From an uncultured bacterium (lineage in GTDB: Bacteria > Actinomycetota > Thermoleophilia > Solirubrobacterales > 70-9): a DNA stretch of 51,494 nucleotides. Below the pieces are notes generated by a model that had not been told where the DNA came from, searched no databases, and saw only the letters and a program-made list of their open reading frames with translations. The position numbers were made by a program, and so were the translations under genes. The stretch covers positions 1 through 51,494 of the forward strand of contig CAIUSP010000018.1 in NCBI GenBank assembly GCA_903901855.1, written 5' to 3'. Positions 16,022 to 16,825 of this stretch are shown here, in pieces. Numbering within the stretch: the first letter of the stretch is position 1; each line of letters starts with the position of its first letter.

Positions 16022-16825
16022 CTACCGGGCCGTCTTGCGCCTGGCAGTGGTCTTCTTCGCGGTGCTCTTGCGGGCACTGCTCCGGCGAGCCGGACGCTTG
16101 GAATAGACCTTCTTGACGCCGGTGACGAGCAGCAGGCCGAATCCGACCTTGGCCAGGAGATCGACGATCGCGAAGATCGTGATTTCCGTGGTCAGATTGA
16201 TCACTGCCTCACCCTCGGTGCCGAGTATCCAGACGATCGGGTAGATGAACCAGAGCACGGTCAAGACGCTGGCGAGAGTGACCCAGAGCTTCTTGGTCTC
16301 CCCTCCCTGCTTCTTGGCCGCGGTGTATACCGGCCCCCAAACCGCGACCAGCACGAGCAGGAAGCCGAGGCACGAAAGTCCGTACCAGACATACCTGTTC
16401 GTCTCGTCAGCGGTGAGTGCGGCAACGAATCCGGTCACGATCATGAACACATCGGCTGCAATGACGCCGCCGATGAGCGCGTTCCTCTCTCGCCCGTCTT
16501 CACCACCGCCGCGGAGCGACGGAAGGCCGACCATCAACAGGCCGACGAGAAGCAGGGGAGTGGTGAACGCCCAATCGATGTAGCGGGCAAAGTAGACATC
16601 GATCCCGCGAGCTGATTCCAGAACGCCTGCACCGGTCGCCATCGCGAAGTAAGCCGCGGTAGCGATCAGACAGACGAGGAAGGAAGCAATCGCGTGATGA
16701 CGCTCCTTTGCCGGCAGACTGGTTCCGATCATGGCGATCAAGATCGCGCCCGCCGCCATACCGGCGAATCCGATCCAGAGCCATGTCTCGTTAACCACAG
16801 CTGCAGCTGCCAAAGGAATACTCAT
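16022..16825 (-). CDS. Microbial rhodopsin, D-T-G type, with basic C-terminal tail
   Basis: Seven-helix retinal protein of 267 residues. Retinal attaches at Lys226 (DLLAKVGFG, counter-ion Asp222). Helix C reads RYIDWAFTTPLLLVG: Arg81, Asp84 and Thr88 match bacteriorhodopsin R82, D85 and T89, but Gly95 stands where the proton donor D96 should be. Glu204 (ILGTEGE) and Glu214 (TTEI) match the proton-release pair E194/E204, Asp125 matches D115, and helix F has the retinal-pocket W192-Y195-P196-W199. Leu92 at the colour-tuning site suggests green absorption. An outward proton pump is most likely. Residues 243-267 form a basic tail with 12 Lys/Arg and no acidic residue. AAGGAGG lies just before the ATG. 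No retinal-synthesis or transducer gene is adjacent. Confidence 0.95.
   Translation of the reverse strand: MSIPLAAAAVVNETWLWIGFAGMAAGAILIAMIGTSLPAKERHHAIASFLVCLIATAAYFAMATGAGVLESARGIDVYFARYIDWAFTTPLLLVGLLMVGLPSLRGGGEDGRERNALIGGVIAADVFMIVTGFVAALTADETNRYVWYGLSCLGFLLVLVAVWGPVYTAAKKQGGETKKLWVTLASVLTVLWFIYPIVWILGTEGEAVINLTTEITIFAIVDLLAKVGFGLLLVTGVKKVYSKRPARRSSARKSTAKKTTARRKTAR

What the first reader, a model, noticed from the sequence alone, without database searches (positions are those of the whole stretch)
16022..16825. D-T-G rhodopsin: missing proton donor but bacteriorhodopsin-like proton release pair
Helix C has Asp84-Thr88-Gly95 at the D85-T89-D96 sites. Most bacterial pumps carry a carboxylate or lysine at the third site. 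Glu204 and Glu214 align with the E194/E204 proton-release group, and Asp125 with D115, features of archaeal-type pumps that proteorhodopsins lack. A few D-T-G pumps are known, but the combination with an intact release group in a high-GC Gram-positive soil-type genome looks unusual. Predicted: green-absorbing outward pump with slow, pH-dependent reprotonation, or a light sensor.
Basis: partly seen in the sequence, partly recalled or inferred. Interest (0 to 1): 0.74.

Follow-up and report, generated by a model that had tools for sequence, protein, structure and literature searches.

The report
Histidine-pair D-T-G rhodopsin of Thermoleophilia
This gene encodes a light-driven, most likely outward, proton pump of a distinct actinobacterial family that has lost the usual internal proton donor, always carries two histidines at the mouth of the proton entry path, and keeps the proton exit pair of the classic archaeal pump; its small-genome host appears unable to make the retinal it needs.

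Summary
The D-T-G observation is correct. The 267-aa protein is a type-1 rhodopsin with Asp84-Thr88-Gly95 in a gap-free helix C, Schiff-base Lys226, Asp125 (BR D115), and Glu204/Glu214 aligned to the BR release pair E194/E204. It is not a one-off: 27 other Thermoleophilia genomes have full or nearly full copies with the same set (exceptions: one Ser-to-Gly at the T46 site, one unreadable His). The known D-T-G/D-T-S 'mirror proteorhodopsins' share this pair, but their proposed donor His37 is Ser48 here. A tree built without the motif columns puts the clade beside the proteobacterial DTG/DTS/TTG group (91/83) and rejects union with the Rubrobacter pump RxR (AU p 0.011) and haloarchaeal pumps (p 0.003). 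An intact release pair is ordinary among RxR-like actinobacterial pumps; combining it with D-T-G plus His-His is the new point. The soil-type label is unsupported: relatives are mostly small-genome, apparently lake-derived MAGs. The window genome shows no Blh, RPE65-type oxygenase, phytoene synthase, CrtI above cut-off, or chemotaxis transducer, so a proton pump using scavenged retinal fits better than a sensor. No experiment was done.

The parts
16022..16825 (-). D-T-G type-1 rhodopsin gene, 267 aa
   Evidence: ORF and PF01036 hit; seven-helix model, pLDDT 90
16694..16699 (-). His43-His44, cytoplasmic end of helix B (BR K41/F42); proposed proton-uptake pair
   Evidence: H43 in 28 and H44 in 29 of 30 rows, the rest being one X and one gap; same alignment columns as the SpaR His pair; role inferred
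16682..16684 (-). Ser48 at the BR T46 / SpaR H37 site
   Evidence: alignment; one Gly in the clade (L049)
16574..16576 (-). Asp84, Schiff-base proton acceptor (BR D85)
   Evidence: alignment; invariant where covered
16562..16564 (-). Thr88 (BR T89)
   Evidence: alignment
16541..16543 (-). Gly95 at the donor site (BR D96)
   Evidence: gap-free helix C alignment; constant in the clade
16499..16501 (-). Glu109, conserved acidic residue (E or D) at the start of helix D; possible partner of the His pair
   Evidence: E in 23, D in 3, gap in 4 of 30 rows; role inferred
16451..16453 (-). Asp125 (BR D115)
   Evidence: 30 of 30 rows
16214..16216 (-). Glu204 (BR E194), release group
   Evidence: invariant where covered
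16184..16186 (-). Glu214 (BR E204), release group
   Evidence: invariant where covered
16160..16162 (-). Asp222, second counterion (BR D212)
   Evidence: alignment
16148..16150 (-). Lys226, retinal Schiff base (BR K216)
   Evidence: alignment
16025..16093 (-). Lys/Arg-rich C-terminal tail (residues 245-267), seen only in the window protein
   Evidence: alignment and conservation counts; low model confidence there

Best explanation
The gene encodes a retinal-binding outward proton pump of a Thermoleophilia D-T-G family. Light isomerises retinal on Lys226, the Schiff-base proton goes to Asp84, and a proton leaves early from the Glu204/Glu214 pair as in BR and RxR. No internal carboxylate reprotonates the Schiff base. 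The proton instead comes from the cytoplasm through an opened path lined by His43-His44 (perhaps with Glu109) and Ser48/Gly95, which predicts slow, pH-dependent M decay. Expected absorption is green, near RxR (541 nm). The host probably takes up retinal from other organisms, or makes it by an unknown route. Shown here: sequence, conservation, predicted fold, phylogenetic position, genes not found. Inferred: transport direction, ion, role of the histidines, colour, retinal source.
For: Acceptor, counterion, Schiff-base Lys, Arg81 and both release Glu are invariant in the clade. The retinal pocket matches BR at 18 of 21 positions, RxR does at 19. RxR's equivalent Glu187/Glu197 were shown to act as the release group (PMC6959264). 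The His pair is the only invariant titratable feature on helix B, and the same columns carry His-His in SpaR, where reprotonation is proposed to use His37 and the cytoplasmic cavity is lined by H32, H33 and E92 (PMC10154332). DTG rhodopsins of Pantoea and Pseudomonas were reported to pump protons. Purifying selection, dN/dS about 0.02-0.13 for close pairs. In L019 a Blh gene lies about 0.9 kb downstream on the same strand, as in G105. No MCP domain in G000.
Against: In SpaR the H32A/H33A double mutant lowered pumping only slightly (PMC10154332), so a His pair alone may not be the donor; here the His37 site is Ser. MpR, another DTG rhodopsin in the neighbouring clade, was reported as a Na+/Li+ pump, and the nearest solved structure, 8xx8 (TTG), is named a halorhodopsin, so the ion cannot be read from the motif. 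No spectroscopy or transport data exist. The window genome lacks the retinal genes tested.
Confidence: 0.62

Rival explanations
1. Outward proton pump in which the Schiff base is reprotonated directly from bulk water through a hydrated cavity; the His pair is structural or a metal-binding (Zn) regulatory site.
For: SpaR H32A/H33A is nearly active, and Zn binding at H32/H33/E92 was proposed (PMC10154332). Gly95 and Ser48 leave room for water (inference).
Against: The pair is invariant here, and the f20 proteins L079/L080 also have His-His with a non-carboxylate at site 96.
Confidence: 0.2
2. Light sensor: the slow photocycle caused by the missing donor is used for signalling rather than energy.
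For: Donor-less rhodopsins often cycle slowly (general knowledge); in several relatives a sigma-factor gene lies next to the rhodopsin.
Against: No MCP domain in G000 or in several clade members; no shared operon partner seen; the sigma-factor gene is convergent, not co-transcribed; the release pair is kept.
Confidence: 0.1
3. Pump of another ion (Na+/Li+ like MpR, or Cl- like the TTG protein 8xx8).
For: The tree places the clade beside a group holding MpR-like DTG proteins and 8xx8; MpR was reported as a Na+/Li+ pump.
Against: Asp at site 85 argues against Cl-; the Methylobacterium helix B pattern is absent and the release Glu are kept.
Confidence: 0.06

Closest known systems
Mirror proteorhodopsins (SpaR, 8ANQ; Pantoea/Pseudomonas DTG pumps)
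   Same: D-T-G/S helix C, His-His at BR 41/42, D115; inside the sister group in the tree; about 32-35% identity
   Different: SpaR His37 is Ser48 here; the BR-204 site is Glu here, Ser or Thr there; Trp at BR W189, Phe there; Solir+mPR alone as one clade is disfavoured (AU p 0.025)
RxR, Rubrobacter xylanophilus rhodopsin (6KFQ)
   Same: Intact Glu release pair, BR-like pocket, D115, actinobacterial; about 40% identity
   Different: RxR has D-T-D with Thr at 46 and Phe at 42; here D-T-G with Ser and His; union as one clade rejected (AU p 0.011)
8XX8, 'Glycilhalorhodopsin' of Salinarimonas soli (TTG)
   Same: Best PDB hit by sequence and by fold (36-39% identity); Gly at the third site, D115
   Different: Thr instead of Asp at site 85; no His pair; Thr at BR E204
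MpR-like DTG rhodopsins of Methylobacterium
   Same: D-T-G; in the sister group
   Different: Ala-Asp and His at BR 41/42 and 46 instead of His-His and Ser; Asp plus Ala/Gly at the release sites
f20 DTG/DTT rhodopsins (L080, L079; same family code as the RxR-like proteins)
   Same: His-His, D-T-G (or D-T-T), both release Glu
   Different: Placed apart in the tree, though union with this clade is not rejected (AU p 0.11)

Membership tests
Microbial (type-1) rhodopsin, PF01036 | Seven helices, Schiff-base Lys in helix G, family profile | tested here: met
   178 bits, K226, seven helices
Mirror proteorhodopsin | His-His at SpaR 32/33 | tested here: met
Mirror proteorhodopsin | Donor His at BR T46 site (SpaR H37) | tested here: not met
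   Ser48
Mirror proteorhodopsin | Ser at SpaR S199 (taken here as the BR E204 column) | tested here: not met
   Glu214
Mirror proteorhodopsin | Ser at SpaR S121 | not tested
   column not read
Mirror proteorhodopsin | One clade with SpaR-like proteins alone | tested here: not met
   AU p 0.025; sister to the whole DTG/DTS/TTG group at 91/83
RxR-like / archaeal-type DTD pump | Carboxylate donor at BR D96 | tested here: not met
   Gly95
RxR-like / archaeal-type DTD pump | Glu pair at BR E194/E204 | tested here: met
RxR-like / archaeal-type DTD pump | One clade with RxR or with haloarchaeal pumps | tested here: not met
   AU p 0.011 and 0.003
Xenorhodopsin / ASR | Pro at BR D212 site | tested here: not met
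   Asp222
Outward proton pump (function) | Light-driven, CCCP-sensitive acidification | not testable with these tools
   needs expression

The most novel reading that the evidence does not exclude
A distinct pump design: BR-type early release through a Glu pair combined with His-pair uptake and no carboxylate donor, kept under strong selection across Thermoleophilia, in streamlined hosts that scavenge retinal; it may preserve the state from which mirror proteorhodopsins arose by losing the release pair and gaining His37.
Probability: 0.35. Interest if true: 0.68.

Novelty: new variant of a known kind. Interest (0 to 1): 0.5.

Why it matters
It separates two features of a pump: how it takes a proton up and how it lets it go. 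A natural family with the release half of bacteriorhodopsin and the donor-less uptake half of mirror proteorhodopsins makes the role of each testable by mutation in both directions. It also adds another case of a selected rhodopsin in genomes that seem unable to make retinal. D-T-G motifs have been noted in freshwater MAGs before (fewer than ten sequences with DTG or ATI motifs, PMC9878933), and retinal dependence has been proposed for other freshwater actinobacteria (PMC12422013), so the setting is not new.

Tried and rejected
Archaeal-type pump that lost its donor: rejected as one clade with RxR (p 0.011) or haloarchaeal pumps (p 0.003). Plain mirror proteorhodopsin: His37 and Ser199 absent, union disfavoured. 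Sensor with chemotaxis transducer: no MCP domain in G000. Misbinned contig: full-length IleRS copies in other genera of the same family are 63-68% identical to the one on this contig, those of another family of the order 58-59%, of the wider class and phylum 49-54%. A carotenoid pathway elsewhere in the genome: PSY, CrtI above cut-off, RPE65 and Blh not found in G000; lycopene cyclase was not searched. Viral relatives: one locus at 36% identity, not followed. Promoter/terminator scan: nothing. Literature searches naming Thermoleophilia, Solirubrobacter or Solirubrobacterales with rhodopsin gave few papers, and from their titles and abstracts none treats this family (not read in full).

Full report
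Observation. The ORF at 16022-16825 on the minus strand encodes a 267-aa Bac_rhodopsin protein, the only one found in the 1.66-Mb, 92%-complete genome. Helix C aligns without gaps to bacteriorhodopsin, giving Asp84, Thr88, Gly95 at D85, T89, D96; Arg81, Asp125, Glu204, Glu214, Asp222 and Lys226 match R82, D115, E194, E204, D212 and K216. The AlphaFold model has seven helices at mean pLDDT 90; the best PDB matches by fold are 8xx8, RxR 6kfq and deltarhodopsin.

A conserved family. Nineteen of 232 genomes searched in the order, and further ones elsewhere in the class, carry a relative; the genome contigs relatives at about 47-56% identity are mostly titled as Solirubrobacterales or Solirubrobacteraceae MAGs. 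In the extended alignment of 30 rows (28 full or nearly full), Arg81, Asp84, Glu204, Glu214, Asp222 and Lys226 are present wherever the position is covered, Asp125 in all 30, and His43 and His44 in all readable rows. Gly95 and Thr88 are likewise constant, and Ser48 is Ser except for one Gly. dN/dS for close pairs within the clade is about 0.02-0.13.

Position. In a tree made without the columns for BR 41, 42, 46, 96, 194 and 204, the clade (99/97) is sister at 91/83 to a group of mirror proteorhodopsins, Methylobacterium DTG proteins and 8xx8 (99/91). Holding it with RxR-like pumps is rejected (AU p 0.011), with haloarchaeal pumps p 0.003, with mirror proteorhodopsins alone p 0.025; holding it with the f20 DTG/DTT pair is not rejected (p 0.11). 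These groups were partly named after seeing the tree. On that tree, loss of the carboxylate at 96 needs one change, His-His four, Glu-Glu three. A quick tree with the added class members keeps them with the clade.

Mechanism. The extracellular half matches BR and RxR, where the equivalent Glu pair was shown by mutation to act as the release group (PMC6959264). On the cytoplasmic side the invariant titratable residues are His43, His44, Arg112, Arg114 and the near-invariant Glu/Asp109. In SpaR, the His pair and E92 line a wide cytoplasmic cavity, His37 is the proposed donor, and H32A/H33A only slightly lowers pumping (PMC10154332). Since the His37 site is Ser here, either the His pair donates or water carries the proton from the bulk. 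Both predict slow, pH-dependent reprotonation. Direction and ion are inferred.

Chromophore. Blh was found in 2 of 232 genomes of the order, one of them G105, which also has the rhodopsin; L019 shows the two genes about 0.9 kb apart on one strand. RPE65-type oxygenase, phytoene synthase and CrtI above cut-off were not found in G000; among the rhodopsin carriers scanned only G105 and G170 have CrtI above cut-off and an RPE65-type oxygenase. MAG incompleteness could hide single genes. Functional rhodopsin without known retinal genes is documented in Aurantimicrobium minutum (PMC7734400), and dependence on outside retinal has been proposed for other freshwater actinobacteria (PMC12422013).

Host and neighbours. 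The flanking genes are an aldehyde dehydrogenase, a 182-aa protein without Pfam or NCBIfam hit, and a fumarase/aspartase-type lyase. No operon partner was seen to be shared across the loci looked at. The 'soil-type' label is not supported: isolate names in the record titles (LaPlata, Loc...-4m/-5m, Umea, RH-23may17, SupBloom) point mostly to lakes and reservoirs, which is an inference from names. The contig fits its bin by IleRS identity.

Noticed in passing
window 16025-16093 (-): Lys/Arg-rich C-terminal tail (residues 245-267) found only in the window protein of this clade.
   Followed up: no
L016 (CAMCVN010000039.1): Record titled as a Bifidobacterium breve MAG carries a rhodopsin of the Solirubrobacterales clade; the organism name is probably wrong.
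   Followed up: no
L079, L080: The family code f20, which holds the RxR-like proteins, also holds His-His rhodopsins with D-T-T or D-T-G and an intact release pair, a possible separate origin.
   Followed up: partly
L165, L166, L167, L067: Another family of the same class carries a D-T-D rhodopsin with Trp-Phe at the His sites and the same release pair.
   Followed up: partly
L062 2411-3145: Salinibacter ruber plasmid rhodopsin with an odd helix C (D-G-N by this alignment).
   Followed up: no
L002, L003, L004, L005, L017: A sigma-70 type gene lies convergent to the rhodopsin in two families of the order.
   Followed up: no
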